DNA of 64,000 nucleotides from Streptosporangiales bacterium. Its GTDB lineage: Bacteria; Actinomycetota; Actinomycetes; Streptosporangiales; WHST01. Numbering within the stretch: position 1 is the first letter of the stretch; each line of letters starts with the position of its first letter. The position numbers and the translations under genes are program-made. Below are positions 29,470 to 59,373 of this stretch, one piece after another. Where the stretch lies: the NCBI GenBank assembly GCA_009379825.1, contig WHTA01000009.1, forward strand, positions 1 to 64,000. The letters are read 5' to 3'. Under the pieces are notes generated by a model. That model saw only the letters and a program-made list of their open reading frames with translations. It was not told where the DNA came from and searched no databases.

Positions 29470-30972
29470 TCACCAGCCGGGTACGTCGAGCGCGCGGCAG
29501 GCGAGCTGGAACGCGAGCCGGACGTCCGGGTCGGCGAGGTCTACGGACAGCGTGCGGGTGACCCGGCCGAGCCTGGCGTTGACCGTGTTGCGGTGCACGC
29601 CCAGGCGGTCCGCCGTCGTGGTGACCGAGTTGCCGCTGTCCAGGTACGTCGCGAGCGTGTCGAGCAGCGTCGCGTCCGCGGCCAGCGGGGCCAGCGCCGA
29701 CTGGGCGAACGCCCGGGCGGTGGACGAGCCGAGCAGCTCGCCGACCAGCCGGTGGATGCCAAGTGCGTCGGTGGCCGCGACACCACCCGACCTGACGTCC
29801 ACCCCGCGGGCGACCTCCCGGGCCTCCTCGAGCGACTCGACCAGACCCACCGGTCCCTCGCGGGCGCTGCCCACCCCGATCCGCAGCGGCGTGTCGTCAC
29901 CTGCGGCCCGTACGCACCGGCGCAGCCGGGTGAGCAGCCGGTGCAGGAAGTCGGGCACCGGCGCGTAGTCGCTGGTGAGCCAGCCGGCCCAGGAGTCTCC
30001 CCACCGGACGACGACGGTCGGGATGTCGACGCCGCGCAGCGCCGCCACCAGCCGGTCCCGGTCGGCCTCGGTCAGCTCCGTGGCGGCGGCGAAGTACAGG
30101 CCGACGTGCCAGCCGTCGAGCCGCCAGCCCATCTCCGCGGCGCGCCGGCGGATCGCGGACGTGGCCGCGCCGTGCTCGTCCAGCAGCTCGGCCAGCAGCC
30201 TGCTCTGCTGGTGGTGGTCCTGCTCCAGCTCCCACCGCCGGACGAGGAACCAGCCGCGCAGGTACAACACCGCCAGCTGGGCGAGCGCGACCGCCTGGTC
30301 GACGAGCACGTCCGGCGGACGGCCCAGCTGGATGAGCAGCCACTGCCGGCTCGGCCCGGGGATCGGGCACGACACGACGACCGCGCCGCCCGGCCGGCGA
30401 TGAGTCTGCGCCACCTCCAGGTCGGTGCGCAGCTCCGGCGCCGACTCGCCGACCTGCGCCCGGTCGCCGAGGGTCGGCCGGGTGCCGAGCTCGCGTTCCA
30501 GGTCGGCCAGGACGCCCTCCGGGGTCGCCGACCCGTCCCGCCACCGGTGTGCGCACCTGAGCACCCGCTCGGCGCGCTCGATCTCGGGCGCCGCCACCAG
30601 CCGCTGCAGCGTGGTGACCACCTCGAGGATGCGGTGCGGCGGCGTGACGAGCAGCGGGAGCCGCAGCCGGTCGGCGATGTGCAGGCTCGCCACCGTCGGA
30701 CCCGGCGTGGACTTGGGCAGCACGATGCCCGCGGCCCCGGCGAGGGCCGCCCGGCGGATCAGCGCGTCCAGCCGCCAGCTCGACACGTCCCCGGACACGC
30801 AGACGAGCAGCTCCCGGTCGCCCACCGCCTCGGCGGCGATGTCGACCAGCCGGACGCTCGTGACCGGCGTGCCCCCGGGTGTACGGCTGACCAGGTGCAG
30901 GTCCTCGAGGCCGGGCAGGCCGGCGAGCAGGTCCGCGTGCTCTACCAGGGGACGTTGCGGCGCCACGGTCAC
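29470..30972 (-). CDS. PucR-type transcriptional regulator
   Basis: This protein of about 500 aa has an N-terminal PucR/PurC-like sensing domain (LPGLEDLHLVSRTPGGTPVTSVRLVDI... GIVLPKSTPGPTV), a central region and a C-terminal PucR helix-turn-helix (LLDTLATYLDSGNSVTTTADRLGVHRNTVNARLGRVTRTLSVDLADPDVRLAFQLACRAL). PucR regulators control purine and other nitrogen-heterocycle catabolism. The GTG at 30972 overlaps the preceding DUF917 stop (GTGA), so it is the last gene of the DUF917-hyuA operon and probably its regulator. Confidence 0.88.
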   Translation of the reverse strand: MTVAPQRPLVEHADLLAGLPGLEDLHLVSRTPGGTPVTSVRLVDIAAEAVGDRELLVCVSGDVSSWRLDALIRRAALAGAAGIVLPKSTPGPTVASLHIADRLRLPLLVTPPHRILEVVTTLQRLVAAPEIERAERVLRCAHRWRDGSATPEGVLADLERELGTRPTLGDRAQVGESAPELRTDLEVAQTHRRPGGAVVVSCPIPGPSRQWLLIQLGRPPDVLVDQAVALAQLAVLYLRGWFLVRRWELEQDHHQQSRLLAELLDEHGAATSAIRRRAAEMGWRLDGWHVGLYFAAATELTEADRDRLVAALRGVDIPTVVVRWGDSWAGWLTSDYAPVPDFLHRLLTRLRRCVRAAGDDTPLRIGVGSAREGPVGLVESLEEAREVARGVDVRSGGVAATDALGIHRLVGELLGSSTARAFAQSALAPLAADATLLDTLATYLDSGNSVTTTADRLGVHRNTVNARLGRVTRTLSVDLADPDVRLAFQLACRALDVPGW

Positions 30973-32024
30973 TCCGCCGGCACGGTCGTGCGGCAGGCGG
31001 GGATGTCCAGCGCGAACGCCGCCGGCTCGACGTAGCCCAACGCGTCCGGGTGCCACCACCCGACGGCACCGGGGAGAGCGGTCACCCGGACGTTGCGGCC
31101 GCGCCGCAACGTCTCCACCGCGAGCACCTCGCGGGAGTCCACGTCCCAGACGAGGATCAGCTCGGGGACGGTCGCCGCTGGCTCTCCGTCCACGACGGCG
31201 GCGAGCCACTCGCTCTCCGCCTCCAGCCGCAGCACCCCGCCAGGCGGGTCGCTGAGGTCGACGACGACCGTGGTCACGGGCATCCTCCTGCCGGTACGTG
31301 GTGCGCCTCGGGTGATCTCGACGACCCTGCCCTCGCCGAGTGGCATCCCGTCGAGCGCGGGGAGCTGGTCGATCGGCGCACCGTCGCGCAGCCGGTGCAC
31401 GTCGCGGCCGAACGCCAGGGCGCGGGTGACCGAGCCGGGGTGGCACGCGCCGGTGACCAGCTCGGTGGTGAGCGGCTGGCAGGCGAGCACTGCCCACCCG
31501 CCCATCGGGGTGAGTGCGGCCCGCACGATCATCTCCAGCATCGCCGGTGTCATCCGGTCGAGCACCAGCTGCCGGCCGTGCACGTCTCCGACGACGGCCG
31601 GGCACGGCGTCCACCCGTGCGCCACCGGGAGCAGCTGCTGGAGCTCGGGCAGCGCCCGGCCCATCAGGTCCGCGTCGACGAGCGGCACCCCGAGTGCCGC
31701 GGCCGCCCACACGGCGGCCACGCCGTTGAACCCGCCGATCTCCATCGGGACGAGGGCGTCGGGGACGGCGTCGATCCCGGACCAGATGTCCAGCAGCTCG
31801 GCGCCTGACGGTGGCCGCTCGGAGAGCAGGCTCGTCGCCCCGACGAACCCGAACGGCACGACACGCGCGTCCGCCGCCAGGCTCGCGGGCGGCACCACCT
31901 GCACCTCCGCGTCGGCGGTCAGCAGCCGGGCGAGGCTGGCGCAGGCTATGCCTGGGTCGCCGCCACCTCCCGAGCCGTAGACGCGGACGCCCTGCCCGAG
32001 GACCTCGACGTCGTCACGCCGGAT
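30969..32024 (-). CDS. DUF917 (S-Me-THD) protein, divergent third copy
   Basis: The product has the DUF917 core: the SGGGGDPG motif, MEIGGFNGVAAVWAAAALGVPLVDADLMGRALPELQQ, and a C-terminal half that differs from the other two copies. The start is a problem. The GGGGDPG motif lies in frame upstream of the first GTG (31904), but no ATG, GTG or TTG occurs between it and the in-frame stop at 32073. CTG at 32057 or ATC at 32024 are the only candidates, both inside the previous gene. The start is therefore uncertain, or the 5' end is damaged. It lies in an operon with the two other copies and hyuA. Confidence 0.72.
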   Translation of the reverse strand: MRRDDVEVLGQGVRVYGSGGGGDPGIACASLARLLTADAEVQVVPPASLAADARVVPFGFVGATSLLSERPPSGAELLDIWSGIDAVPDALVPMEIGGFNGVAAVWAAAALGVPLVDADLMGRALPELQQLLPVAHGWTPCPAVVGDVHGRQLVLDRMTPAMLEMIVRAALTPMGGWAVLACQPLTTELVTGACHPGSVTRALAFGRDVHRLRDGAPIDQLPALDGMPLGEGRVVEITRGAPRTGRRMPVTTVVVDLSDPPGGVLRLEAESEWLAAVVDGEPAATVPELILVWDVDSREVLAVETLRRGRNVRVTALPGAVGWWHPDALGYVEPAAFALDIPACRTTVPAE

Positions 32025-33132
32025 CCGGAAAGGGGACGGGGTTGCGTTGCTCGACAGGGACGAACTCCTCCGCTAGACCGAACGCTTGCGGTCCGAAGAT
32101 ACGCAAGGCTTCCGGTGTGCGCATGCTCGCCGGGGTGGAGATGCCGAAGACGACCACGCGCTGGCCGAACCTGAGCCCCTCCGTGGTGATCGGCTCGCCG
32201 GTCTCGCTGTCCAGCACGGAGACCAGGTCTGGGACCAACGCCCTGGTGGTGCCGTTCACCCGGCAGACGAGGTTCTCGTTCTGGAACGAGATCTCGCAGA
32301 CGTCATCGTCCTCGAACCCGCGGATGGTGACCTCGCCGCGGACGAAGCCGCCCTCCGTGCGCCTGGCGACGTCGGTGATCTTGCCGCGGAACAGCTCCAT
32401 GCCGTGCGAGTAGAGGGTGTCGCTCAGCTCCAGGCGTAGCGCCTCGAACGGGTTGCGGTGCTGCTCGCGGGCGAGCCGCAGGCACCGGCCGAGCCGCAGG
32501 CCGAGGCTGATCGTGCGCGGGATGGCGGTGCGTTTGATCTCCGTGCCGCGCATCGGGTACTCGGCGATGTGCGACGCGCCGCCTAGCCGTACGGTGACGC
32601 CGCGGGAGAGCCACTCCATCTGGTGGGCGTTCATGCCGGTGTCGATGACGATGGTGGAACCGTCGGCGGCGGCGATGGACATCGGGCAGCTGGAGACGCC
32701 GTACACGTAGAACGTCTCCATCTGCAGCTCGGGGAACGCCCGGCCCATGCCGTCCGCGTCCACGCACGGCAGCCCGGTCATGGCGGCGGTGAACAGCGGC
32801 ATCATCGAGTTGATGCCGCCGCACTCGATCGGCATGGTCGCCTCGGCCTTCTCGCCGAGCCGGTCCTCCAGCGTGCGCAGCGCGAGCACGGGTTCCCTGC
32901 CGTGCGAGATCTTCTCCAGCATGATGGTCGGCGCGCCCATCATGGCCGTCGGGATGACCAGGGCGTCGTCGTCGACCTCGTCCGGGTCGAGCATGGTGAT
33001 GCCGTCCCCGTCGCCGAGCGCGCTCGCCACCAGCAGCCGGCCGATGTACGGGTCGCCGCCGCCGCCGGTGCCGAGCAACGTCGCGCCGCGGGCGAGGTCG
33101 GGCAGGTCGGCGGCGGTCAGCGTCCAGCTCAT
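32014..33132 (-). CDS. DUF917 (S-methylthiohydantoin desulfurase-like) protein, second copy
   Basis: This 372-aa protein has the N-terminal DUF917 domain (LARGATLLGTGGGGDPYIGRLL, VIPTAMMGAPTIMLEKI, PIECGGINSMMPLFTAAMTGLPCVDADGMGRAFPELQM) and the C-terminal domain (GLRFGQRVVVFG...EALRIFGPQAFGL). The family includes S-methylthiohydantoin desulfurase, and others sit next to hydantoinases. The substrate is likely a hydantoin-like ring, by context. ATG 33132 overlaps the previous stop (ATGA). Confidence 0.87.
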   Translation of the reverse strand: MSWTLTAADLPDLARGATLLGTGGGGDPYIGRLLVASALGDGDGITMLDPDEVDDDALVIPTAMMGAPTIMLEKISHGREPVLALRTLEDRLGEKAEATMPIECGGINSMMPLFTAAMTGLPCVDADGMGRAFPELQMETFYVYGVSSCPMSIAAADGSTIVIDTGMNAHQMEWLSRGVTVRLGGASHIAEYPMRGTEIKRTAIPRTISLGLRLGRCLRLAREQHRNPFEALRLELSDTLYSHGMELFRGKITDVARRTEGGFVRGEVTIRGFEDDDVCEISFQNENLVCRVNGTTRALVPDLVSVLDSETGEPITTEGLRFGQRVVVFGISTPASMRTPEALRIFGPQAFGLAEEFVPVEQRNPVPFPDPA

Positions 33133-34211
33133 GCGTTCTCCGCCACGGCGATCGACCGGTACTCGACGTCCAGCCCGAACGCGGACGGGCCGACGAGGGC
33201 GAGTCCCGCGGGGGACTTCCACCGCGGGTCGCACGGGGCGGCGCCGACGATGACGCGCAGGCCGTACCTGAGGCCCTCCGTCGTGACGGGGGTGGCGGAC
33301 TCGGACTCGAACAGGCAGATCAGGTCGGGCACGACGGCGCGGGCGACGCCGTCCACGGTCGCGACCAGGTGCTCGTTCTGGAACTGCAGCTCGAGCGTGC
33401 TGCCCTCGTACCTGCCGGTGCCGGTGAGGGTGGCGCTGCCGCGGGCGAAGCCGCCGGTCGTGCGGCGCGACACGTCGACCACCTTGCCGGTGAACAGCCG
33501 CGTGCCGTCCACCACGCGCAGGGCGGCGTCGACCGGGTCGTGGTGGTGCTCCCGCGCCGCGCGCACGCTCGCGCCTACCTCACGGCACAGCGACAAGCTG
33601 CCGCCGACCAGGTAGTCCCGCGCGAGCTTGCCGTCGAGCGGGTAGTTCGACAGCACGCTGGAGCAGCCCATCTCGATGGTGATGTTGCGGGCGAGCCGTT
33701 CCGTCCAGACGTTGTCGACGGTGTCGAGCACCGCGCTGTTGCCCTTGTCGTCGGCGAGCGCCATGGGCGTCGCGGAGACACCGCCGATGGTGGGCAGCAC
33801 CATCTGCAGCTCGGGGAACGCACGGCCCATCCCGTCGGCGTCGACAAGCGGCAGCCGCATCTGGGCGGCCGCGGCCACCGGGATCATCGAGTTGATGCCG
33901 CCGGCCTCGATCGGGAGCAGGTGGGTGGCGTTCCGGCCAAGCCGCGCCTCCACCATCCGCACGACCGTCTGCAGGTCGTCGCGGCCGGGGATCTTCTCCA
34001 CCATCACCGTCGGCGCGCCCATCATGGCCACCGGCAGGACGAGCGCGTCGTCACCCACCTGGTCGAGCCCGACCAGCTCGACCGGGCCGTACTCGCTGAC
34101 CGCCTGCTGCGCGAGCAGCCGGCCGATGTACGGGTCGCCGCCGCCCCCGGTGCCGAGCACTGCCGCACCGAACGCGAGGTCGGTCAGGTCCTCTCCGCTG
34201 AGTTCGCTCAT
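33129..34211 (-). CDS. DUF917 (S-Me-THD-like) protein, first copy
   Basis: This 360-aa protein is a full-length paralogue of the next gene: LAFGAAVLGTGGGGDPYIGRLL, VLPVAMMGAPTVMVEKIPG, LPIEAGGINSMIPVAAAAQMRLPLVDADGMGRAFPELQM and GLRYGLRVIVGAAPC. DUF917 proteins often work in pairs in hydantoin-type pathways. The start at 34211 lies 4 bp after the hyuA stop, and its end overlaps the next start by 4 bp. The two copies may form a heteromer (inference). Confidence 0.87.
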   Translation of the reverse strand: MSELSGEDLTDLAFGAAVLGTGGGGDPYIGRLLAQQAVSEYGPVELVGLDQVGDDALVLPVAMMGAPTVMVEKIPGRDDLQTVVRMVEARLGRNATHLLPIEAGGINSMIPVAAAAQMRLPLVDADGMGRAFPELQMVLPTIGGVSATPMALADDKGNSAVLDTVDNVWTERLARNITIEMGCSSVLSNYPLDGKLARDYLVGGSLSLCREVGASVRAAREHHHDPVDAALRVVDGTRLFTGKVVDVSRRTTGGFARGSATLTGTGRYEGSTLELQFQNEHLVATVDGVARAVVPDLICLFESESATPVTTEGLRYGLRVIVGAAPCDPRWKSPAGLALVGPSAFGLDVEYRSIAVAENA

Positions 34212-34215
34212 TCGC

Positions 34216-35766
34216 TCAGCCTCCGAGCACCAGGTCGCCGACGGCCTTGACGCGGATCCGGGTCGCGTTGCCGGGTAGGTACGCGATCGGCACCTCGTCC
34301 ACGTCGATGATGTCCACCGTGCTCGGGTCGGCGCCCGCGGCGACGGCGCGTTCGCGCGCCTCCTCCTTCGCCTGCGCGACGACCTCGCCGCGCTGGCCGG
34401 GCTCGACCGGGAACACCCGGTCCACCTCGCCGCCGACCTGGGCGATGGCCGCACCGATCGCGTTCGCTACCGCGTAGTGCTCCGGGCGGTGCACCTGGCT
34501 CGCGACGTCGAACTCGTCCGGCACGAGGAAGCTCCCGCCGCCGACGGCCACCACGGGGATCGGGTCCTCGGACGTTCGCATCCGGTCGACCACGTCGCTG
34601 GCCATCCGGGTGGCGGTCGCGATGGTCTCGGCCAGCAGCTCCGCGGACAGGTGACCGACCCTGGTGCGGTCGCCGACGTCCACGAGCCCCGCGGCGACGG
34701 CCACGTCGGTCGTGGTCAACGTGTCGCCGCCGAAGACCAGCGCCTTCTCCTGCAGCCGGTAGCCCACCGAGTCCGGGCCGATGGTCAGCGCGTTGCCGTC
34801 CTGGCGGACGATGCTGCCGCCGCCGAGGCCGATGCTGATCACGTCCGGCATCCGGAAGTTGGTGCGGATGCCCGCGACGTTCACCTCGGTGCCGGCCTCC
34901 CTGGGGAAGTTCTTCACCAGGATGCCGACGTCCGCGGTCGTACCGCCCACGTCCACGACCGCGCAGTCGGCGAGTCCGGAGAGGAACGCCGCGCCGCGCA
35001 TCGAGTTGGTCGGTCCGGACGCGAACGTGGCGACCGGGTAGCGGCGGGCGAAGTCGACGTCCATCAGCGTGCCGTCGTTCTGCGACAGGTACAGCCGCCC
35101 TGGTATCCCTGCCGCGCGCACGGTCTCCGCCAGGCTGTCCAGGATGGTCGGCGCGAGCTCGCGCAGCGCGGCGTTGATGATGGTCGCGTTCTCCCGCTCC
35201 AGCAGCCCGATCCGGCCGACCTCGTGGGAGAGGCTGACCATCACGTCGGGCAGCTCGGACTGGACGATCTCCGCGGCCCGGATCTCGTCGTCGGCGGAGA
35301 CGGGGGAGAAGACCGACGAGATCGCGACGCTGCGGGCGCCGCCCGACTTGAGGTCCCTGGCGACCTCCCGGATCTCGTCCTCGTCGAGCGGCGAGATGGC
35401 GCGCCCGTCGAACTCGACGCCGCCGTGGCAGAGGTAGTGCCTGCCGGACATCGCGGTGACCAGGTGCTCCGGCCAGTCGGTGAACGGGGGCAGCGCGGCG
35501 GTCGCGGGCAGGCCGAGCCTGATGGCCGCGGTCGGCGCCAGCCGGCGTGCCTCGACCAGAGCGTTGGTGAAGTGCGTCGTGCCGATCATCACCGCCTTGA
35601 CCTGGCTCATGTCCACGGCGGCGGATCGGTCGAGCTCGCGCAGGGCGGCGACGATACCGCTGGTCACGTCCTCGGTGGTGGCCGTTTTCGTGGTGGCGAC
35701 CACCTGGTTCCCGTCCATGTAGACGGCGTCGGTGTTGGTGCCTCCGACGTCGATACCTATGCGCAT
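34216..35766 (-). CDS. hyuA: HyuA-type hydantoinase/oxoprolinase subunit
   Basis: This protein of about 516 aa starts MRIGIDVGGTNTDAVYMDG and has the ASKHA ATPase motifs of the HyuA/5-oxoprolinase/acetophenone carboxylase family: phosphate-1 loop DVGGTNTD, ASGPTNSMRGAAFL, VDVGGTTADVGIL and VAVGGGSFLVP. HyuA uses ATP to open cyclic amides, usually with HyuB. No HyuB is present. Instead three DUF917 genes follow, a combination seen in some bacterial hydantoin clusters. It is the first gene of the operon and divergent from a racemase gene. Confidence 0.9.
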   Translation of the reverse strand: MRIGIDVGGTNTDAVYMDGNQVVATTKTATTEDVTSGIVAALRELDRSAAVDMSQVKAVMIGTTHFTNALVEARRLAPTAAIRLGLPATAALPPFTDWPEHLVTAMSGRHYLCHGGVEFDGRAISPLDEDEIREVARDLKSGGARSVAISSVFSPVSADDEIRAAEIVQSELPDVMVSLSHEVGRIGLLERENATIINAALRELAPTILDSLAETVRAAGIPGRLYLSQNDGTLMDVDFARRYPVATFASGPTNSMRGAAFLSGLADCAVVDVGGTTADVGILVKNFPREAGTEVNVAGIRTNFRMPDVISIGLGGGSIVRQDGNALTIGPDSVGYRLQEKALVFGGDTLTTTDVAVAAGLVDVGDRTRVGHLSAELLAETIATATRMASDVVDRMRTSEDPIPVVAVGGGSFLVPDEFDVASQVHRPEHYAVANAIGAAIAQVGGEVDRVFPVEPGQRGEVVAQAKEEARERAVAAGADPSTVDIIDVDEVPIAYLPGNATRIRVKAVGDLVLGG

Positions 35767-35831
35767 CGGCGCCCCTTCGCATCCGGTCCGGTGTGACGGC
35801 ACTGCCGACCCTAGGAAGAGCCCGTATGGAT

Positions 35832-35903
35832 GTCACGCAGCAATGTGACCACTCGAGGGAGGGCAACTGGGCAACCTGCACATTGTCCATTTCGCGATTG
35901 GAC
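35832..35903. promoter_or_regulatory. Divergent promoter region with two inverted repeats
   Basis: Between hyuA and the racemase lie GTCAC-N8-GTGAC at 35832-35849 and GTCCA-N9-TGGAC at 35885-35903, the latter centred on TCGCGA. Either could bind the PucR regulator encoded at the end of the operon. No match to a published PucR site is claimed. The racemase RBS GAGGAGGGG follows at about 35933. Confidence 0.45.
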
Positions 35904-35944
35904 CCTAATGTCTCCGCAACAACTCCCGACGCGAGGAGGGGCCT

Positions 35945-36673
35945 GTGCGACTCACGGCGATCTGCCCGATTCTCGGTGAGGGCTTCCATGCCGAGGTGGA
36001 GAAGGAAGCCGCCGCCTGGATCCCACCCGACGTCGAGCTCGAGGTGCGCTCGGTGGAGTACGGCGTCGAGTCCATCGAGTCCGAGTACGACGAGGTGCTC
36101 TGCTCGCCGCCCATCCTGGAGCAGATCGAGGCGGCCGCCGCTGACGGCACCGACGGCGTGTTCGTGAGCTGTTTCGCCGACCCCGGGGTCGCCGCGGCCC
36201 GTGAGCGGGTGGACGTGCCGGTGGTGGGCGGCTTCGAGCCGTCCGTGCTGACCGCGCTCTCCCTCGGCGACCGGGTGGGGATCGTGACAGTGCTGCCGAA
36301 CGTCGTCCCGACCATCAGGGCGGCGATCCGGCGACACGGGCTCGCCGAGCGCTGCGCGTCCGTACGGGTGGTCGACATCCCCGTGCTCGGTCTCACCGAC
36401 CGCGCCGAGATGCTGAACCGGCTGCACGACCAGGCGCGCGCCGCGGTCGACGCGGGCGAGGTCGACGTCATCGTGCTGGGCTGCACGGGCATGTCTGGTG
36501 CCGCGGCGGAGCTGCAGGACCGGTTGCCGGCGTCCGGGCCGGCGGTTCCCGTCCTCGACCCGACAGGCGCGGCGATCGGGTGGCTGCTGCACCTCGCGCG
36601 GCTGGGCGTCTCGTCCAGCCGGACGACGTACCTGCCGCCGCCGGACAAGAAGCGCACCCGACCGGGCGGCTAG
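35945..36673 (+). CDS. Asp/Glu/hydantoin racemase family protein
   Basis: This 242-aa protein starts at GTG 35945 with GAGGAGGGG upstream. It carries the two catalytic cysteine motifs of the family, FVSCFADPGV and VIVLGCTGMSG, and GGFEPSVLTALSLGDRVGIVTV. This size and motif pattern match hydantoin racemase (HyuE-like) better than glutamate racemase. It probably interconverts enantiomers of the ring substrate or product. It is divergent from hyuA and followed after 4 bp by a nitroreductase-like gene. Confidence 0.87.
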   Translation: MRLTAICPILGEGFHAEVEKEAAAWIPPDVELEVRSVEYGVESIESEYDEVLCSPPILEQIEAAAADGTDGVFVSCFADPGVAAARERVDVPVVGGFEPSVLTALSLGDRVGIVTVLPNVVPTIRAAIRRHGLAERCASVRVVDIPVLGLTDRAEMLNRLHDQARAAVDAGEVDVIVLGCTGMSGAAAELQDRLPASGPAVPVLDPTGAAIGWLLHLARLGVSSSRTTYLPPPDKKRTRPGG

Positions 36674-36677
36674 GGCG

Positions 36678-37232
36678 ATGACGGCAGCCAGCGCTGGCCA
36701 CGACGGTGTCGAGACGCTGATGCGTCGGCGCCGGATGCACCGCGAGTTCGACGACCGCCCGGTTCCGCGGGACGTGCTGGACAAGATGGCGTGGGCCGCG
36801 GCGCGCGCACAGCAGGCCCGTTCCGGCGTACGGCACATCGTGGTCGTGGACGACCCGGCCGTGCTGGCGACGGCCAGGCAGGTGCTGCCTGGCTTCATCA
36901 ACAACGCGCCGGCGATGCTCGTCCACTGCACGGACGTGGTGCAGGCGGCCGAGGTGCTCGGCAGCCGCGGGGTGGAGGTCACCACCCGTCTCGACGCCGG
37001 CGCCGCCTGCGCCCACCTGGCGCTGATGGCCCAGACCCTCGGCCTCGGCGTGTGCACCGTGACCAGCTGGACCGAGCCCGCAGTGCAGGCACTGCTCGGC
37101 CTGCCGCACCACATCCGGCCGGACGTCACCGTCGCCGTCGGCTACGTCGCGCCGGCGCCGCCGCCGGCCGCCCGCGGGTTCCGCACGGAGTACCACCTCA
37201 ACCGGTTCGCGGACGGGGGTGGCGGCGACTGA
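36678..37232 (+). CDS. Nitroreductase-family flavoprotein
   Basis: This protein of about 184 aa contains MRRRRMHREFDDRPVPRDVLDKMAWAAARAQQARSGVRHIVVV, DAGAACAHLALMAQTLGLGVCTVTSW and GLPHHIRPDVTVAVGYV, standard segments of FMN-dependent nitroreductases. It may reduce a C=C or C=N bond in the substrate ring. The start follows the racemase stop by 4 bp and its end overlaps the next ORF (TGATG), which indicates an operon. Confidence 0.85.
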   Translation: MTAASAGHDGVETLMRRRRMHREFDDRPVPRDVLDKMAWAAARAQQARSGVRHIVVVDDPAVLATARQVLPGFINNAPAMLVHCTDVVQAAEVLGSRGVEVTTRLDAGAACAHLALMAQTLGLGVCTVTSWTEPAVQALLGLPHHIRPDVTVAVGYVAPAPPPAARGFRTEYHLNRFADGGGGD

Positions 37233-37555
37233 TGTCGGAGAACCTCGACCAGGAAGTCTTCGCGATCATCACGCATCTGGTCAGCAGTGCGCCGACCAGC
37301 CTGCAGGAGACGCCGAGCCTTGCGGCGTTCCGGATGGTCGACGCCGCACACCGGTTGATGGAGTTGGTGGAAGGTAGCGACGCGTTCCAGGACGACGAGT
37401 TCCTGCGGTCCGCGCGAGCGGACTATGCCGCGAACTTCAACCTCGTCATGACGGACCCGGACAAGTTCGACAGCTGGCTGGCGGAGTACGTCCAGTCGTT
37501 CACGCGGGAGGCCCTGCGTCGCGCCAGAGCGGGCGCGCACGTCCCGGACGCGTGA
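37232..37555 (+). CDS. Small uncharacterised helical protein (DUF6092-like)
   Basis: This 107-aa protein reads MSENLDQEVFAIITHLVSSAPTSLQETPSLAAFRMVDAAHRLMELVEG and continues as a mostly helical acidic protein. It resembles DUF6092 proteins as I recall them, with low confidence. The ATG overlaps the nitroreductase stop (TGATG), so translation is coupled. It could be a small partner of the flavoprotein. Nothing catalytic is visible. Confidence 0.7.
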   Translation: MSENLDQEVFAIITHLVSSAPTSLQETPSLAAFRMVDAAHRLMELVEGSDAFQDDEFLRSARADYAANFNLVMTDPDKFDSWLAEYVQSFTREALRRARAGAHVPDA

Positions 37556-37622
37556 TCGCGGCCAGCTCGCGCGCCGTGGTGCTCGCGGCGCCGGCACGGG
37601 GGCACCACACAAGGAGGTCACC

Positions 37623-38954
37623 ATGGATTCCTCGAAGGCCGACCGGCTGTTCCAGGACTACAGCACCGAAGAGGTGCCGCCGGAAAAGACCAGGACGTGG
37701 CTGTCCATGGGCCTGGTCTGGTCCGGCGTAGGCATCAGCCTCGGTCTGCTGCTGACCGGGGGCACCGTCGCCCAGGGACTGACCATCAAGCAGGCCGCCG
37801 TGGCCGGCGTCCTCGGTGGCATCATCCTCGCCGTCATCAGCACGCTCACCGGGATCGTCGGCGCCCGCGCCCACCTGTCGACCGCCATGGTCAGCCGGTT
37901 CGCCTTCGGCAACCGGGCGGTGCTGTTGATCGCCATGCTCCAGGCGCTCGGCGCGTACGGCTGGTTCGCCGTGCAGCTGGGTCTGTTCTCCCGGGCGGCG
38001 AGCACCGCGTGGGAGTCGACGACCGGGCTGCAGTGGTCCGACGGGCCGTTCATCGTCATCGGCGGCCTGCTGATGATCGCGACCTCCATCGTCGGCTACC
38101 GCGCGCTGGACAAGCTCAGCAAGGTGGCGGTGCCGCTGATGCTGCTGTTGATGGCCGCCTCGGTGTGGCGCATCTTCTCGGACAGCTCGGTCACGGAGAT
38201 CCTCACCCTGCGCGGCGGCGGCCCTGCGATCACGCTCGGCACCGGCATCTCGCTGGTCGTCAGCTCGTTCGTCGTCGGCGCGGTCATCGCCCCGGACGTG
38301 TCCCGCTACGCGAAGTCGCCGAAGCACGTGGTGGGTGGTGCCGTGCTCGCGTTCGCGGTAGTCACCCCGACGGTCATGGCCGTGGGGTCGTTGATGGCTC
38401 TCGAGACCGGCACCTCGGACATCGTGAACATCCTGCTCCGCCTCGGCTGGGGCGCGCTGGCGCTGGTGCTGCTGATGCTCGCCCAGTGGACGTCGAACGA
38501 CAACAACCTGTACTCCGCCGCCCTCGGCTTCGTGGTCGTACTCAGGAAGTGGAAGAAGTGGCAGCTGACGGGGATCGCCGGTGTCATCGGGATCGTGCTC
38601 GCGCTCGCCGGGATCTACGACAGCTTCACGACGTTCCTCACCGTGCTCGGCGTCTTCGTCCCGCCGATGGCCGGCGTCATCGTCATCGACTACTACGTCA
38701 CGCGGAAGACGGTGTACCGCGGTGGTTTCGAGACGAACGTCGTGCCGGTCCGGGTGCTCTCCCTGGTTGCCTGGGCGGTCGGTTCCGCAGCCTCCGCGCT
38801 CACCAGCTACACCGCGCTGAGCCTGACCAGCATCCCCGCCGTCGACGGCCTGCTCGTCGCGGCGATCCTGCAGGTGTTCTTCGGCAGGTTCCTGGAGAAG
38901 GGCTCCGCCGTGCAGGAACCCCGACCGGAGAAGGGATACGAGTACGCCGGTTGA
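37623..38954 (+). CDS. NCS1 permease (cytosine/purine/hydantoin family)
   Basis: This 443-aa protein has 12 hydrophobic segments and the CodB-type start EEVPPEKTRTWLSMGLVWSGVGISLGLLLTGG. SFVVGAVIAPDVSRYAKSPKHVVGGAVLAF and QWTSNDNNLYSAALGF are diagnostic of NCS1. The NCS1 family includes cytosine, allantoin and hydantoin (Mhp1) carriers. By context it probably imports the ring compound metabolised by HyuA and the DUF917 enzymes. It has a good RBS (AAGGAGG) before ATG 37623. Confidence 0.9.
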   Translation: MDSSKADRLFQDYSTEEVPPEKTRTWLSMGLVWSGVGISLGLLLTGGTVAQGLTIKQAAVAGVLGGIILAVISTLTGIVGARAHLSTAMVSRFAFGNRAVLLIAMLQALGAYGWFAVQLGLFSRAASTAWESTTGLQWSDGPFIVIGGLLMIATSIVGYRALDKLSKVAVPLMLLLMAASVWRIFSDSSVTEILTLRGGGPAITLGTGISLVVSSFVVGAVIAPDVSRYAKSPKHVVGGAVLAFAVVTPTVMAVGSLMALETGTSDIVNILLRLGWGALALVLLMLAQWTSNDNNLYSAALGFVVVLRKWKKWQLTGIAGVIGIVLALAGIYDSFTTFLTVLGVFVPPMAGVIVIDYYVTRKTVYRGGFETNVVPVRVLSLVAWAVGSAASALTSYTALSLTSIPAVDGLLVAAILQVFFGRFLEKGSAVQEPRPEKGYEYAG

Positions 38955-51119: not shown

Positions 51120-51887
51120 TCATTGGCCAGCGAACCGTGGTGTCTCCTTGCGGAAGAACGCGGCGATGGCCTGCTTGTGGTCGTCGGTGTCCGACAGTGC
51201 GGCGAAGTGGTCGAGCTCGCGCGTGTACGCGTCCGCGAAGGCGAGGTCGGCGGCCTCGTGCAGCGCAGACTTGGCGCGGGCGACGGCGAGCGGTGCACGG
51301 GACGCGATCTCGGCTGCGATGCGCTGTGCTTCGGCCCGTTCCTCGCCTGCGGGCACCACCCTGGTCGCCACACCGAGACGGCCCGCCTCGTCGCCGGTGA
51401 ACGTGCGCCCGGTCAGCACGATGTCCTTGGCCGCGGCGAGCCCGGTGAGGCGTACCAGCCTGCTGGTGCTCACGACCAGACCCACCTTCACCCCTGCGGC
51501 GCACAACTTGGTGTCGGCACTGACGACGCGGATGTCGGACGCCAGCGCGAGCTCGAACCCACCACCCATGCAGTAGCCGTGCACGGCGGCGACCACCGGG
51601 CAGTCGAGTTCTTCCAGCTGATCGTAGACGGCGTTGTCCTCGGCGAGGAACTGGCGAACGGTCGCCGGAGTCAGCTGCTCCTCCTCGCGGAGGTCGGCGC
51701 CGGCGCAGAACGCGCGGTCGCCCGCCCCGGTGACGACGACCGCCCGAATCCCGCCGTGGTCGCGCACCTGGCCGAGTACGCCGAGCAGGCAGTGCCGGAC
51801 GTCGGCGGTGATCACGTTCACCGGTGGGTTGTCGATGGTGATCGTCGCGACGTGCCCGTCCACCGAGAGGCGTGCCTCGCCGCTCAT
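51120..51887 (-). CDS. Enoyl-CoA hydratase/isomerase family (CaiD-like position)
   Basis: This 255-aa protein of the crotonase fold has AFCAGADLREEE as first oxyanion element and VAAVHGYCMGGGFELALASDIRVVSADTKLCAAGVKVGL as the second. The C-terminal helix ends DHKQAIAAFFRKETPRFAGQ. It hydrates or isomerises an acyl-CoA made by the upstream CoA transferase. ATG 51887 overlaps that gene's stop (ATGA). Confidence 0.92.
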   Translation of the reverse strand: MSGEARLSVDGHVATITIDNPPVNVITADVRHCLLGVLGQVRDHGGIRAVVVTGAGDRAFCAGADLREEEQLTPATVRQFLAEDNAVYDQLEELDCPVVAAVHGYCMGGGFELALASDIRVVSADTKLCAAGVKVGLVVSTSRLVRLTGLAAAKDIVLTGRTFTGDEAGRLGVATRVVPAGEERAEAQRIAAEIASRAPLAVARAKSALHEAADLAFADAYTRELDHFAALSDTDDHKQAIAAFFRKETPRFAGQ

Positions 51888-53080
51888 CCGACGACACCCG
51901 CGGAACGCAGCTTGGTGATCCCCTCGGCGTCGTACCCGAGCTCGCGGAGGACGTCGTCGGTGTGCTCGGCAAGCTCCGGTGCCGGCGTGCGTACCGTCGC
52001 CGGGGTTGCGGAGAACTTGACGACCGGACCCACCGTTCGCGTCGAACCGGCGCGTGGATGCTCGACGTCGACGACCATGTCGCGTGCCGCGGTGTGCTCG
52101 TCGGCCAGCGCCTCTGGCACGGTGTTGATGGGGCCCGCAGGAATACCTGCCTCCTCGAACAGCGCGAGCCAGTGGCTGCGGTCGTGCTCCTTCGTCCGTT
52201 CCTCGACCAGCGGGACGAGCTGGTCGAGGTTGCGCATCCGGTCCGCGTTGGTGCCGAACCGCGGGTCGGTGGCCAGGTCGCTGCGCCCGATCACCGCACA
52301 GAACTTCGGCCACTGGCGTTCGCCGTCGGCGCCGACCGTCACGTAACCGTCGCGGCACGCGATCGCCTGGTACGGCGCGCTCAGCCGGTGCGCGGACCCG
52401 GTCGGCTGTGGAGTGCGGCCGGTGTAGAAGTACTCGGTCGCCTCCCACACGGACAGCCCGAGGCCCGCCTCGAACAGCGACGTCTCGACCCGTTGCCCGT
52501 TGCCGGTGCGGTCCCGCGCGACGAGCGCGCCGAGGATCCCGTAGACGGCGAACAGCCCGGCACCCAGGTCGGTGATCGGCGGGCCGGTCTTGACCGGCGG
52601 TCCGCCAGGCGTGCCGGTGACGCTCATGATGCCGGACATGCTCTGCGTGATCAGGTCGAGCCCGCCGCGTGCCGCGTAGGGCCCGGTCTGCCCGAAGCCG
52701 GAGATCGAGCAGTACACCAGCCGGGGGAGCTTGGCGGAGAGTTGCTCGTAGTCGAGCCCGAGGCGCGTGGCCACGCCTGGCCGGAAGTTCTCGACGAGCA
52801 CGTCGGCGGTGGCGAGCAGCTCGTGCACCAGGTCGAGCCCGCGCTGCTGCTTGAGGTCGACGCTGACCGAGCGCTTGTTGCGGTTCACCGTCAGGAACGC
52901 GCCGCTGGTCTGCTGGTCGATGGCCGGATCCATGGCGCGGCTGAGGTCGCCGCGCCCTGGCACCTCGACCTTGACCACGTCGGCCCCGAGGTCCGCGAGC
53001 AGCATCGTCGCGAACGGTCCGGCGAGCACCTGGGTCAGATCCACGACCCTGATCCCGGCCAGTGCGGATTCGTCGCTCAT
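51884..53080 (-). CDS. Class III CoA-transferase (CaiB/BaiF family)
   Basis: This 398-aa protein contains GIRVVDLTQVLAGPFATMLLADLGADVVKVEVPGRGD, ADVLVENFRPGVATRLGLDYEQL and ITDLGAGLFAVYGILGALVARDRTGNGQRVETSLFEA, with the conserved Asp in TDLGAG that forms the CoA anhydride. It activates an organic acid by CoA transfer. First gene of the operon with the enoyl-CoA hydratase and the gamma-CA-like protein, and divergent from a GntR regulator. Confidence 0.93.
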   Translation of the reverse strand: MSDESALAGIRVVDLTQVLAGPFATMLLADLGADVVKVEVPGRGDLSRAMDPAIDQQTSGAFLTVNRNKRSVSVDLKQQRGLDLVHELLATADVLVENFRPGVATRLGLDYEQLSAKLPRLVYCSISGFGQTGPYAARGGLDLITQSMSGIMSVTGTPGGPPVKTGPPITDLGAGLFAVYGILGALVARDRTGNGQRVETSLFEAGLGLSVWEATEYFYTGRTPQPTGSAHRLSAPYQAIACRDGYVTVGADGERQWPKFCAVIGRSDLATDPRFGTNADRMRNLDQLVPLVEERTKEHDRSHWLALFEEAGIPAGPINTVPEALADEHTAARDMVVDVEHPRAGSTRTVGPVVKFSATPATVRTPAPELAEHTDDVLRELGYDAEGITKLRSAGVVG

Positions 53081-53097
53081 GTCTTCCTCTGCAGATC

Positions 53098-53123
53098 TAA
53101 TGTAAGACCATTGTTTTACATTA
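53098..53123. promoter_or_regulatory. Perfect inverted repeat, likely FadR-type operator
   Basis: TAATGTAA (53098-53105) and TTACATTA (53116-53123) form a perfect 8-bp inverted repeat with a 10-bp spacer, in an AT-rich island. It lies 17 bp upstream of the CoA-transferase start and 108 bp before the regulator's GTG. It is a good candidate operator for the divergent GntR regulator. Confidence 0.72.
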
Positions 53124-53231
53124 CCAGTTGCTACCATGGAGGTGGCCGTCGCGTCGTGCAACGGCCGTGCCCGTCCGACGAGCTCCGATAGGGTGAGTGA
53201 ACCCAATGATGCTTCCGCCGAGGAGTCGACC

Positions 53232-53963
53232 GTGAGCCTGCGGCTGGAACCACTCGACCGAGCCAAGACCTACGAGCTCGTGGTCCGCCGTATCCAGGAG
53301 GAGATCCTTGCGGGGCGCCTCCGTCCGGGCGACCGGCTTCCTGGAGAGCGTCAGCTCAGCGAGGTGCTTCAGGTCAGCCGTCCGTCGGTCCGGGAGGCGG
53401 TGCGAGTTCTCCAGGCCCTGGAGATCGTGCGCAGCCGCCCAGGCACCGGGCCGGACTCCGGGCTGATCGTCTCCACCGAGCCGGTGCGTGCCCTGTCCGA
53501 TCTGCTGCGGCTGCACGTCGCGCTCACCAGCTACAGCGTCGCGGACGTACTGCAGGTGCGGATGTCGCTGGAAGACCAGGCCGTGCGCCTGCTCGCCGCG
53601 AGCGAGGACGTCGACACCACCCGGTTGCGCGAGCTGCTCGCGGAGATGTCCGTGCCCGGGCTCGACCCGGACACCTTCCACCAACTCGACACCGACTTCC
53701 ACCTCGAGCTGGCCCGCGCGACAGGCAACGATCTCCTCGCCGACCTGATGCAGGCGCTGCGCGAGGCAGTACGCCAGACCATGCTGGACGCGTTCCTCGC
53801 CCACCCCGACTGGGACAGCTGGGTCGACGAACTGGTCGACGAGCACAGGGCGATCTTCGCCGCCGTCAGCGACGGCGACGGCGAGACCGCCGCCCGGCTG
53901 ATCCGCGAGCACATCGGCGGGTTCTACGCCGCGCTGCAATACGGTGCGGAAGCGTCCCGCTAG
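53232..53963 (+). CDS. GntR/FadR-family regulator
   Basis: This protein of about 243 aa has a winged helix (KTYELVVRRIQEEILAGRLRPGDRLPGERQLSEVLQVSRPSVREAVRVLQALEIVRSRPG) and an FCD domain (DVLQVRMSLEDQAVRLLA, FHQLDTDFHLELARATGNDLLADLM, DEHRAIFAAVSDGDGETAARLIREH). I prefer GTG 53232, which has GAGGAG six bases upstream and aligns with the usual family start, over ATG 53136. It probably represses the CoA-transferase operon and perhaps the MHS transporter gene. Confidence 0.88.
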   Translation: MSLRLEPLDRAKTYELVVRRIQEEILAGRLRPGDRLPGERQLSEVLQVSRPSVREAVRVLQALEIVRSRPGTGPDSGLIVSTEPVRALSDLLRLHVALTSYSVADVLQVRMSLEDQAVRLLAASEDVDTTRLRELLAEMSVPGLDPDTFHQLDTDFHLELARATGNDLLADLMQALREAVRQTMLDAFLAHPDWDSWVDELVDEHRAIFAAVSDGDGETAARLIREHIGGFYAALQYGAEASR

Positions 53964-55300
53964 CCGGCGGTGTTCACCGTCGCGGGTGCGACGCTCTCGT
54001 CCAGGTGGTGTGCCCGGTTGCGCAACCCGTAGACGCACAGGGTGGACACCGTTGCGACGGCCATGATGTACGCACAGATCAGCCACGGGCTGTTGCCACC
54101 CCAGATCAGCAACGTCGTCAGGATCAGCGGGGTCAGTCCGCTGGACACGATGCTCGCGAACTGGAAGACGACCGAGATGCCGCTGTAGCGGATGCGCGGC
54201 TCGAACAGCTCGGCGTAGAGCGCGCCCTGCGGCGCGAACATCATCGGGTAGGCGACGCCGAACACCACGACGAGCACCAGGGGCACCGCGATCCCGCCGA
54301 CGCCGAAGAGCAGGAAGGCGGGGACTGCCACCACGCCGAGCAGTGCAGCTCCCGTACCGAACGTGCGGGTGCGGCCGAACGAGTCGGACACCCGCCCCCA
54401 CGTCGGGATGAAGAGCACGCACACCGCTGCCGCGATCATGACGGCCGTCAGTGCGTCGTCCTCGGGGAAGCTCACCACGTCGGTCAGGTACGCGATGGAG
54501 AAGACCGCCCAGGTGTTGAAGCCGACGCCCTCGGCCCACTTGGTGCCCATCGCGAGCAGGATGGTGCTCTTCTTGGCGGAGACCACGAGGTCCTTCAGCG
54601 GCGCCTTCGCCACCTCTCCGGACTCCTGCAGCGCGCGGAAGGCCGGGCTCTCCATGATCTTCAGCCGGATCACCAGCCCGACGGCCACGAGCACTGCGGA
54701 GAACAGGAACGCCACCCGCCAGCCCCAGGCCTGGAACGCCGCACTCGTGGTCGCCCAGTTCAACAGCGAGAAGGCACCGGTCGCGAGCAGCAGCCCGACG
54801 GGCACGCCGATCTGCGGCCAGCTGCCGTAGAGGCCGCGCCGGCGTTTCGGCGCGTACTCCACGGCGAGCAACACCGCGCCGCCCCACTCGCCCGCGATGC
54901 CGATGCCCTGGAAGATCCGCAGCACGGTCAACAGCAGCGGTGCCCAGATACCGATGGTCGCGTACGTCGGCAGCAGGCCGATGAACGCGGTGCCCACGCC
55001 CATGATCATCATCGTGGTCACGAGTGCGGACTTGCGGCCGATCCGGTCGCCGAAGTGCCCGAAGAGCAGGGCACCGATCGGCCGGCCGAGATAGCCGGTC
55101 GCGAACGTGCCGAACGCGATGAGCGTCCCCACGATCGGCTCGCTGGCCGGGAAGAAGGCCTGGTTGAACACCAGGCTGGCAGCGAGGCCGTAGATGAAGA
55201 AGTCGTACCACTCGATGGTGGTGCCGATGGCGCTCGCGAAGGCTGCGATGCGGCGTTCCCGCACCGACGGTGCGGTCACACGGGTTGGCTGGACGGACAC
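53960..55300 (-). CDS. MFS transporter, metabolite:H+ symporter (MHS) family
   Basis: This 446-aa protein has 12 helices and the MHS signature ASAIGTTIEWYDFFIYGLAASLVFNQAFFP, RPIGALLFGHFGDRIGRKSALVTTMMIMGVGTAFIGLLP and FQGIGIAGEWGGAVLLAVEYAP. MHS carriers (ShiA, ProP, KgtP) import carboxylates, shikimate or betaines with protons. By context it could carry the acid activated by the CaiB-like enzyme. Its stop overlaps the regulator's stop by 4 bp. Confidence 0.9.
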   Translation of the reverse strand: MSVQPTRVTAPSVRERRIAAFASAIGTTIEWYDFFIYGLAASLVFNQAFFPASEPIVGTLIAFGTFATGYLGRPIGALLFGHFGDRIGRKSALVTTMMIMGVGTAFIGLLPTYATIGIWAPLLLTVLRIFQGIGIAGEWGGAVLLAVEYAPKRRRGLYGSWPQIGVPVGLLLATGAFSLLNWATTSAAFQAWGWRVAFLFSAVLVAVGLVIRLKIMESPAFRALQESGEVAKAPLKDLVVSAKKSTILLAMGTKWAEGVGFNTWAVFSIAYLTDVVSFPEDDALTAVMIAAAVCVLFIPTWGRVSDSFGRTRTFGTGAALLGVVAVPAFLLFGVGGIAVPLVLVVVFGVAYPMMFAPQGALYAELFEPRIRYSGISVVFQFASIVSSGLTPLILTTLLIWGGNSPWLICAYIMAVATVSTLCVYGLRNRAHHLDESVAPATVNTAG

Positions 55301-55342
55301 GGCATTCCTCCGGCGGGGACAGAGTTGCGGTGGGGGAGTTGC

Positions 55343-56320
55343 TCAGGGGTCGACGAGCGCGCCGTCGTGCATGACGACCTGGTCGCCGATCTCGATGGTG
55401 GGCGACCGGAACACCATGTCGACGTGTAGGCCGCCGTCGATCACGTCGATGCCGGGGTCGGCCGGCGTGGTGCCCACCGCGACGTGGGCGGTTCCGTAAC
55501 ATGCCTCGGCGCTCGTCACGTTGTCGATCAGCTTCGCCTGGTCGTTCAGGCCGATGCCGATCTCGCTGACGCCGAACGCGTTCGGGTTGTCCGCGGAGCG
55601 CAGCAGCCGCATCAGCTCCGCGCCCTGTGGGCCGCCGTCGATGTCGACGACGCGCCCGGACTCGACCTGGACCGTGAACGCCTCGTCCACCAGGCCGATC
55701 CCGACGCAGTACGCGTCGACGACCACGGTGCCGTTCGCGGTTCCCGCGACCGGCACCACCCCGGCCTCCAGGAACGGCGGTGCGCCGAACTGCCCCGGCT
55801 GGGTGGCCAGGCCGGTGAGCGCGCGCCCCGGCCGGCCCTCGGCGGAGACGGTGATGTCGGTGCCTGCCGCGCTGGTGAGCCGCATCCGGTCCGCGTTCGT
55901 CACGAAGTCGGCGACCCGCTCGATGCGCGGCGCGAGCGCGTGGAAGTCCGCGCAGACCGCGCCGGGGCCGCGGAGCATGTCGGCGTCGATGTCACCGATG
56001 AACAGGTAGCGCAGGCCGCGCTGCTGACCGTCCTGGCGCGCCTTGCTGTGTTGTACGAAGCGACTGGTCAGCTCGATGACGAGGGCCGCGCCGTGGAAGG
56101 CGGCGGCGGCGACCTCGGTGGGCCTGAGCTGGGCCTGCGGCCGCGGCCGCATCTGCACCACGGAGGCCTCGGCACCGGTCTCCTCGACGGCCGCGCGGAA
56201 GACCTCCACGATCTCGGCCGCAACCCGTCGCCGGTGAGCAACAGCACCTCTTCGTCCGGGCGAGGGTCACCACAGGCCACCAGGCGCCTTGCGGCCCCGG
56301 AGCAGTGTTTCGTCGGTCAT
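55343..56320 (-). pseudogene. M29-like aminopeptidase, two compensating frameshifts
   Basis: ATG 56320 begins MTDETLLR, but a run of four Gs at about 56298 has one base too many and the frame stops at 56267. The next stretch (RLVACGDPRPDEEVLLLTGDGL) is in a second frame. One base is missing near 56230, after which EIVEVFRAAVEETGAEASVVQMRPR continues in the original frame to 55343. Repaired, it is 325 aa, the same length as the paralogue at 56403. Its C-terminal part (GLNDQAKLIDNVTSAEACYGTAHVAVG) is the M29-like/leucyl aminopeptidase T family. Unless restarted internally, it is inactive. Confidence 0.78.
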
Positions 56321-56402
56321 GCGTACGGCTCCGCCTTCAGCTCTCGCTTCGCTTGTACGGCCGAATCCCCGGAGGGTGCTTACCCTTACCGAAGGCGTAC
56401 AG

Positions 56403-57380: not shown

Positions 57381-57387
57381 GCCGCCG

Positions 57388-58145
57388 CTACGGCAGCCCG
57401 CCGGTGGCGCGGATGTTCTGTCCGGTCAGCCAGCGTGCGTCCGAGGTGGCCAGGAACGCGATCACGTCGGCGACGTCGGACGGCTGGCCGAGGCGGCCCA
57501 ACGGGGTGAGCTGTTCGGTCAGCTGCAGGGTCTCTGCGGTGTTCGTGGACCGGAGCAGGTCGGTGTCGGTGGCGCCCGGTGCGACGGTGTTCACCGTCAT
57601 GCCCCTGGGGGCGAGCTCGCGCCCGCGACGTGGGTGAACTGCTCCACGGCGCCCTTGCTCGCGGCGTAGGCGGCGAGACCGGGTGCGGCGAGCACGGTGT
57701 TGAGGGTCGACAGGTTGACGATCCGGCCGCCGTCGCGCATGTGCCTGGCGGCGAACTGGATGGCGACGAACACGGCCTTCGTGTTCACCGCAAGCACGCG
57801 GTCGTACTCGTCGTCGGTCAGGTCGGTGGAAGCTGGTCGGGGTGTGGGGCGCGGCGGCGTTGTTGACGAGGATGTCGAGGCCGTCAGGTGGTCGAGTGCC
57901 CGGTCGAGGAACGCGCGGGTGGCGGCCGGGTCGCCGAGGTCGACCTGGATGCCATGTGCGCGGCCGCCGCCGTGGTCGGCGGTCTTCTCCACGTCCAGCG
58001 CGGCCGCGGTGTTCTCGGCGTAGCCGAACACCACCGCGACACCGTCACGGGCGAGCCGGTCGACGACTGCCCGGCCGATGCCGCGCGAGCCGCCGGTCAC
58101 GATGGCGGTCCTGCCCGCCAGTTCGCCCATCAGCTGGTCGACCAT
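57388..58145 (-). pseudogene. Short-chain dehydrogenase/reductase, frameshifted
   Basis: ATG 58145 begins MVDQLMGELAGRTAIVTGGSRGIGRAVVDRLARDGVAVVFGYA, with the TGxxxGxG motif. The segment with the NNAA motif (GLDILVNNAAAPHTPTSF) lies in another frame, with one base missing near 57890. The frame returns for STDLTDDEYDRVLAVNTKAVF and the catalytic YAASKGAVEQFTHVA. A further missing base near 57615 shifts RELAPRGMTVNTVAPGATDTDLLRSTN...WLTGQNIRATGGLP to yet another frame, ending at 57388. Three indels break an otherwise canonical SDR (about 252 aa). Confidence 0.83.
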
Positions 58146-58181
58146 GGTCACTGATCGTAGAGGCAGCGACCCGGTAGCTTG

Positions 58182-59342: not shown

Positions 59343-59373
59343 GCGACGACCGTACCTGTTGCCGGTCGTCGGT

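What the first reader, a model, noticed from the sequence alone, without database searches (positions are those of the whole stretch)
29470..38954. Candidate (thio)hydantoin catabolic locus with three DUF917 genes and no HyuB
HyuA is followed by three tandem DUF917/S-Me-THD paralogues and a PucR regulator in one overlapping operon. The divergent arm has a hydantoin-type racemase, nitroreductase, a small coupled protein and an NCS1 permease. This combination suggests a complete uptake-racemisation-ring-opening pathway in which DUF917 proteins replace HyuB. The nitroreductase and the small helical protein have no obvious role in known hydantoin routes.
Basis: partly seen in the sequence, partly recalled or inferred. 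Interest (0 to 1): 0.7.

Follow-up and report, generated by a model that had tools for sequence, protein, structure and literature searches.

The report
Cyclic-amide breakdown operon with unusual oxidase
This actinobacterium carries a conserved but uncharacterised gene set that probably imports and opens small ring-shaped amides such as hydantoins or cyclic dipeptides, and next to it sits a two-part flavin enzyme related to cyclic-dipeptide oxidases that has lost the known catalytic residues.

Summary
The genes are real and correctly placed. The minus-strand arm (short HyuA, three DUF917 genes, PucR-type regulator) is a conserved cassette: 13 other genomes carry NCS1-HyuA-D1-D2-D3-PucR in this order, and the three window DUF917 genes fall in three separate orthologue clades, so they are ancient and not local duplicates. 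All 32 short-HyuA loci examined have a DUF917 neighbour; only one has HyuB nearby. The 'nitroreductase plus small helical protein' do have a known counterpart: the CDOA/CDOB pair of cyclodipeptide oxidases (AlbAB). A 2024 paper already reports non-biosynthetic CDO-like loci enriched for hydantoin racemases and DUF917. The window pair belongs to a rare subfamily that keeps the flavin-phosphate arginines but has lost AlbA C115 and S54 and AlbB Y37, the last essential in AlbAB. DUF917 is not a HyuB homologue by predicted fold and has no invariant His for HyuB's metal site. The thiohydantoin label is not supported. Best reading: ATP-dependent catabolism of a cyclic amide, with racemase and CDO-like oxidase as an attached module; the substrate (hydantoin or cyclic dipeptide) is unresolved. 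New variant of a known kind.

The parts
34216..35766 (-). Short HyuA-type ATPase (516 aa), no HyuA C-terminal domain
   Evidence: Pfam PF05378 and PF01968; phosphate motifs DVGGTNTD at residue 6 and DVGGTTAD at residue 272 present, GxxPGP absent; about 70% identity to cassette HyuA in other actinomycetes
33129..34211 (-). DUF917 copy 1 (D1)
   Evidence: PF06032/PF20906; D1 orthologue clade, support 98/96
32014..33132 (-). DUF917 copy 2 (D2)
   Evidence: PF06032/PF20906; D2 orthologue clade, support 97/95
30969..32030 (-). DUF917 copy 3 (D3); start codon uncertain (TTC at the orthologous site; ATC two codons on, CTG nine codons upstream)
   Evidence: PF06032/PF20906; D3 clade, support 100/99, long branch 2.19; start region
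29470..30972 (-). PucR-type regulator (GGDEF_2 + HTH_30), last gene of the cassette
   Evidence: conserved position in 13 genomes
35767..35944 (.). 178-bp divergent intergenic region between HyuA and racemase
   Evidence: sequence; no consensus promoter or repeat found
35945..36673 (+). Hydantoin/allantoin-type racemase, Cys76 and Cys180 present
   Evidence: PF01177; best solved relatives 3qvj putative hydantoin racemase, 5lfd allantoin racemase; Cys positions
36678..37232 (+). CDOA-like flavoprotein (relative of the cyclodipeptide-oxidase flavin subunit)
   Evidence: best PDB hits are the two solved CDOA chains 9exv_A and 8uc3_A; residue comparison
37232..37555 (+). CDOB-like small helical subunit (PF19585/DUF6092); its ATG shares a base with the CDOA stop
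   Evidence: PF19585 1e-21; predicted fold best matches 9exv_C (prob 0.99) and 8uc3_C (0.92), E-values weak
37623..38954 (+). NCS1 permease, not the cassette's own NCS1 (about 30% identity to it)
   Evidence: PF02133; CodB 7qoa 2e-34, Mhp1 1e-7

Best explanation
A catabolic locus, probably PucR-controlled, for a small cyclic amide (a hydantoin-like or diketopiperazine-like ring). Shown: gene content, conserved operon structure, family identity, key residues. Inferred: the NCS1 permease imports the ring; the two-cysteine racemase inverts its alpha carbon; the CDOA/CDOB complex, a flavoenzyme related to cyclodipeptide oxidases, oxidises or otherwise conditions the ring; short HyuA, an ATP-dependent enzyme, activates the ring amide; D1 and D2, perhaps helped by the diverged D3, complete ring opening in a complex with HyuA. 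DUF917 would act as a non-homologous partner in the place that HyuB has in caprolactamase. HyuA-D1-D2-D3-PucR is the conserved core; racemase-CDOA-CDOB-NCS1 is a module joined to it.
For: Cassette NCS1-HyuA-D1-D2-D3-PucR in 13 genomes of the order and of Pseudonocardia. D1, D2, D3 are separate orthologue clades. 32 of 32 short-HyuA loci have an adjacent same-strand DUF917. CDO-like genes sit beside DUF917/HyuA in two HyuA lineages and different gene orders: window; Nonomuraea CDOA-CDOB-DUF917-HyuA (HyuA 47%); a Nocardiopsaceae MAG with DUF917-DUF917-D-hydantoinase-CDOB-CDOA-DUF917-HyuA; Modestobacter DUF917-M19 dipeptidase-FAD oxidase divergent from racemase-CDOA-CDOB. A racemase is close to HyuA-DUF917-DUF917 also in Rhizobium, Aureimonas and Aminobacter plasmids. 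At least five other CDO loci read in the order carry a CDPS-like gene instead (by eye); no CDPS match in this genome. Independent report of the enrichment: PMC11055893.
Against: No biochemistry for this subfamily. The cassette usually occurs without racemase or CDO within several kb. The CDO-like pair has lost S54 (AlbA) and Y37 (AlbB); Y37F abolishes AlbAB activity, so alpha,beta-dehydrogenation cannot be assumed. In Pseudonocardia both CDO genomes carry the cassette HyuA, but so do 26 of 62 genomes at the threshold used, so that co-occurrence is not significant. HyuA lacks the GxxPGP adenosine motif. Two same-genus genomes lack the locus.
Confidence: 0.55

Rival explanations
1. Narrower version of the best explanation: cyclic dipeptide (diketopiperazine) catabolism. 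CDO-like oxidation at C-alpha/C-beta, HyuA-DUF917 opens the ring, and a dipeptidase of the M19 type cleaves the product.
For: CDO relatives act on diketopiperazines (PMC11055893); the Modestobacter locus couples an M19 dipeptidase and a glycine-oxidase-like FAD enzyme to DUF917 and racemase-CDOA-CDOB; the P. acaciae CDO sits by an Lrp regulator and an indolepyruvate-decarboxylase-like gene; peptidases reported near many non-CDPS CDOs. Own genome has three M19 genes elsewhere.
Against: Catalytic Tyr and Ser of AlbAB not conserved; NCS1 carriers are not known dipeptide carriers (own knowledge); the Nocardiopsaceae locus holds a D-hydantoinase instead.
Confidence: 0.25
2. Narrower version of the best explanation: 5-substituted hydantoin or dihydropyrimidine catabolism.
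For: Hydantoin/allantoin-type racemase with both cysteines; NCS1 related to CodB and Mhp1; D-hydantoinase over cut-off in the Nocardiopsaceae relative; characterised DUF917 members are named for hydantoin-type rings (NCBIfam names).
Against: No carbamoylase-type gene in the unit; CDO relatives are known from diketopiperazines only.
Confidence: 0.35
3. Two unrelated units: a cyclic-amide cassette (HyuA-D1-D2-D3-PucR) and a separate racemase-CDO-NCS1 operon brought together by chance.
For: The cassette normally stands alone with its own NCS1; the window NCS1 is a different type; Pseudonocardia CDO genes are unlinked to the cassette.
Against: CDO next to DUF917/HyuA recurs in several lineages and gene orders; racemase near HyuA-DUF917 recurs in Alphaproteobacteria.
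Confidence: 0.2
4. Thiohydantoin / ergothioneine-type desulfuration locus.
For: DUF917 Pfam name; a Streptomycetaceae relative has OsmC and a cysteine-synthase-like gene inside the cassette.
Against: NCBIfam S-methyl thiohydantoin and thiohydantoin desulfurase cut-offs clearly missed by all three copies; no ergothionase or thiourocanate hydratase in the unit.
Confidence: 0.07
5. Biosynthesis of a modified cyclic amide natural product.
For: Characterised CDOs are biosynthetic (PMC11055893).
Against: No CDPS match in the genome (the family also gave no hit in the controls, so absence is not proven); uptake permease and HyuA/DUF917 point to breakdown.
Confidence: 0.05

Closest known systems
Cyclodipeptide oxidase AlbAB (Streptomyces noursei, 8uc3) and its relative 9exv
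   Same: Overlapping CDOA and CDOB genes, same families PF00881 and PF19585, FMN-phosphate arginines R24/R28 kept, CDOB fold is the most probable match
   Different: Asp at the C115 column, Arg at S54, Leu at Y37, no CDPS, linked to HyuA/DUF917/racemase
Non-CDPS CDO-like loci of Andreas and Giessen 2024 (PMC11055893)
   Same: CDO-like pair with hydantoin racemase and DUF917
   Different: HyuA is not mentioned in the passages read; here the DUF917 genes belong to a conserved three-copy HyuA cassette
ATP-dependent caprolactamase CapAB / HyuAB / 5-oxoprolinase (PMC8453981)
   Same: HyuA N-terminal and ATPase domains, both phosphate motifs
   Different: Short HyuA without C-terminal domain and GxxPGP; partner is DUF917, not HyuB; no conserved His metal site
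S-methyl thiohydantoin desulfurase / thiohydantoin desulfurase (NF058532, NF058529)
   Same: Same DUF917 family
   Different: All three copies score less than a quarter of the equivalog cut-offs
DUF917 structure 2o3i (Chromobacterium violaceum CV_3147)
   Same: Only significant fold match of D1 (TM-score 0.78)
   Different: 24% identity, function not described in the entry title

Membership tests
Cyclodipeptide oxidase (CDO) | Adjacent CDOA (PF00881) and CDOB (PF19585) genes | tested here: met
   overlapping genes 36678-37232 and 37232-37555
Cyclodipeptide oxidase (CDO) | Catalytic Ser54 (AlbA) and Tyr37 (AlbB) | tested here: not met
   Alignment with about 20 other CDO sequences: Arg48 and Leu30 at these columns, shared by the whole window-type subfamily
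Cyclodipeptide oxidase (CDO) | Covalent FMN through Cys115 | tested here: not met
   Asp106 at this column; expected for non-CDPS members (PMC11055893)
Cyclodipeptide oxidase (CDO) | FMN-phosphate arginines R24, R28 | tested here: met
   Arg at both aligned positions
Cyclodipeptide oxidase (CDO) | Filament formation and dehydrogenation of cyclic dipeptides | not testable with these tools
   needs purified protein
HyuAB / caprolactamase / oxoprolinase | HyuA ATPase with two phosphate motifs | tested here: met
HyuAB / caprolactamase / oxoprolinase | GxxPGP adenosine motif | tested here: not met
   the region reads GPDSVGYRLQ
HyuAB / caprolactamase / oxoprolinase | HyuB partner with Asp-His-Asp-His metal site | tested here: not met
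   no HyuB at the locus; DUF917 has no invariant His and no HyuB-like fold match
S-Me-THD / thiohydantoin desulfurase | NCBIfam equivalog cut-off | tested here: not met
   best 100.8, 89.7 and 50.4 bits against 450
S-Me-THD-like (DUF917) superfamily | Pfam PF06032 and PF20906 both over cut-off | tested here: met
   all three copies
Hydantoin/allantoin racemase | PF01177 with two catalytic cysteines | tested here: met
   Cys76, Cys180
NCS1 permease | PF02133 over cut-off and a specific equivalog | tested here: inconclusive
   family met; cytosine permease equivalog missed, 240 against 326 bits

The most novel reading that the evidence does not exclude
The locus encodes an oxidative, ATP-dependent route for opening cyclic dipeptides, with a new CDO-like subfamily that uses a different catalytic base and with short HyuA plus DUF917 as the ring-opening enzyme that has so far had no gene.
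Probability: 0.2. Interest if true: 0.8.

Novelty: new variant of a known kind. Interest (0 to 1): 0.5.

Why it matters
Short HyuA plus DUF917 is a widespread, uncharacterised pair. A 2013 study states that the enzymes that hydrolyse cyclic dipeptides were unclear (PMC3852281), and most CDO-like enzymes lie outside biosynthetic clusters with no known role (PMC11055893). This locus ties these problems to one compact operon that can be tested, and it shows a CDO-like subfamily that must work without the AlbAB catalytic residues.

Tried and rejected
Rejected: recent tandem duplication of DUF917 (tree). Rejected: DUF917 as a HyuB homologue. Rejected as support: co-occurrence of CDO and cassette in Pseudonocardia, 2 of 2 against a background of 26 of 62. 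The phylum-wide CDOB search gave two further loci: one on a 5-kb contig, the other where my simple gene finder called nothing.
Full report
OBSERVATION. The nine genes are present at the stated places and all have strong family matches. The minus-strand arm is short HyuA, three DUF917 genes and a PucR-type regulator, tightly packed; the plus-strand arm is racemase, nitroreductase-like flavoprotein, a 107-aa helical protein and an NCS1 permease. HyuB is absent from the locus though the genome has about 20 HyuB matches elsewhere and one more DUF917.

THE MINUS-STRAND ARM IS A CONSERVED CASSETTE. Searching 347 genomes of the order and then reading regions gave NCS1-HyuA-D1-D2-D3-PucR in 13 genomes (11 of the order, 2 Pseudonocardia), in the same order and direction, with HyuA about 70%, D1 about 60%, D2 about 64% and D3 about 40% identical to the window copies. 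A maximum-likelihood tree places window D1, D2 and D3 in three separate, supported clades with their positional orthologues. They are therefore old, separate copies. Window D3 is very diverged (branch 2.19) and has TTC where orthologues have ATG or GTG; its frame is open and intact, so it may start at a near-cognate codon or be poorly translated. In Rhizobium, Aureimonas and Aminobacter plasmids the related unit is racemase, ABC transporter, HyuA, DUF917 (one or two copies annotated), LuxR-type regulator, which independently links a racemase to HyuA-DUF917. In a Streptomycetaceae plasmid OsmC and cysteine-synthase-like genes lie inside the unit.

HyuA AND DUF917. All 32 short-HyuA loci examined have a same-strand DUF917 within 400 bp; only one has HyuB nearby. 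HyuA keeps both phosphate motifs known from caprolactamase CapA but lacks GxxPGP (motifs from PMC8453981). DUF917 has invariant Glu, Asp, Asn and Arg but no invariant His or Cys, so a HyuB-type Asp-His-Asp-His metal site is not there. An AlphaFold2 model of D1 (pLDDT 83.5, seven sequences) matches only the DUF917 structure 2o3i with significance. DUF917 thus takes HyuB's genomic place without being HyuB. The thiohydantoin desulfurase equivalogs are missed by a wide margin.

THE PLUS-STRAND ARM. The small protein is PF19585, which is CDOB, the small subunit of cyclodipeptide oxidases (PMC11055893). The best solved relatives of the nitroreductase are the two known CDOA chains, and the predicted CDOB fold has the two known CDOB chains as its most probable matches, although with weak E-values. 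The paper already reports that most CDO-like loci lie outside biosynthetic clusters and are enriched for hydantoin racemases and DUF917. In this order, at least five other CDO loci carry a gene that looks like a cyclodipeptide synthase (judged by eye from sequence), while four CDO loci, the window's included, adjoin HyuA and DUF917. The scan of about 85,000 species genomes found only seven loci: six with a window-like CDOA at 73-75% identity, in Modestobacter (2), Pseudonocardia (2) and Nonomuraea (2), and one 31% relative in a Nocardiopsaceae MAG.

A RESIDUE-LEVEL SURPRISE. In AlbAB, AlbA S54 and AlbB Y37 form the proposed catalytic pair; Y37F has no measurable activity. In the window-type subfamily the aligned residues are Arg and Leu in every member, and the flavin-linking Cys115 is Asp, while the FMN-phosphate arginines R24 and R28 are kept. 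The Nocardiopsaceae relative, whose locus also has a D-hydantoinase, keeps Ser and Tyr. The window enzyme is therefore CDO-like in build, but its reaction cannot be taken over from AlbAB.

WHAT IT PROBABLY DOES. Uptake, racemisation and ATP-dependent opening of a cyclic amide is the best reading. Evidence on the substrate is split: a D-hydantoinase over its cut-off sits in the Nocardiopsaceae relative, whereas Modestobacter has an M19 dipeptidase and a glycine-oxidase-like FAD enzyme in the same neighbourhood. All functional steps are inferred. The linkage of the two arms in the window could still be chance; recurrence in other lineages argues against this, but the Pseudonocardia co-occurrence is not significant.

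NOVELTY. The class (CDO-like plus racemase plus DUF917) was published in general terms in 2024. New here, as far as the searches reach: the conserved HyuA-three-DUF917-PucR cassette, the constant short-HyuA/DUF917 pairing without HyuB, and a CDO-like subfamily without the known catalytic residues. The papers searched are open-licence only, so prior reports elsewhere cannot be excluded.

Noticed in passing
window 31904-32072 (-): Third DUF917 lacks any ATG/GTG/TTG between the upstream stop and an internal GTG at 31904; orthologues start at a codon that is TTC here. Possible near-cognate start (ATC or CTG) or decaying translation.
   Followed up: partly
window 51887-59363: A second catabolic-looking stretch: class III CoA-transferase, GntR/FCD regulator, MFS transporter, M29-like protein and a RidA-family protein; not linked to the finding.
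   Followed up: no
own genome G000: About 20 HyuB-family matches in one 6.15 Mb genome, a large hydantoinase/oxoprolinase set; two same-genus genomes lack close matches to the window's HyuA and CDOB.
   Followed up: no
L111 9676-11207 (Streptomycetaceae NBC_01309 plasmid): OsmC and PLP cysteine-synthase-like genes lie within the HyuA-DUF917 cassette, which hints at a sulfur-containing substrate in that version.
   Followed up: no
L053 7698-10790 (Pseudonocardia acaciae): Stand-alone CDOA/CDOB next to an Lrp/AsnC regulator and an indolepyruvate-decarboxylase-like gene.
   Followed up: partly
L140 5867-6556: A short-chain-dehydrogenase-like gene lies between D2 and D3 in one genome's cassette.
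   Followed up: no
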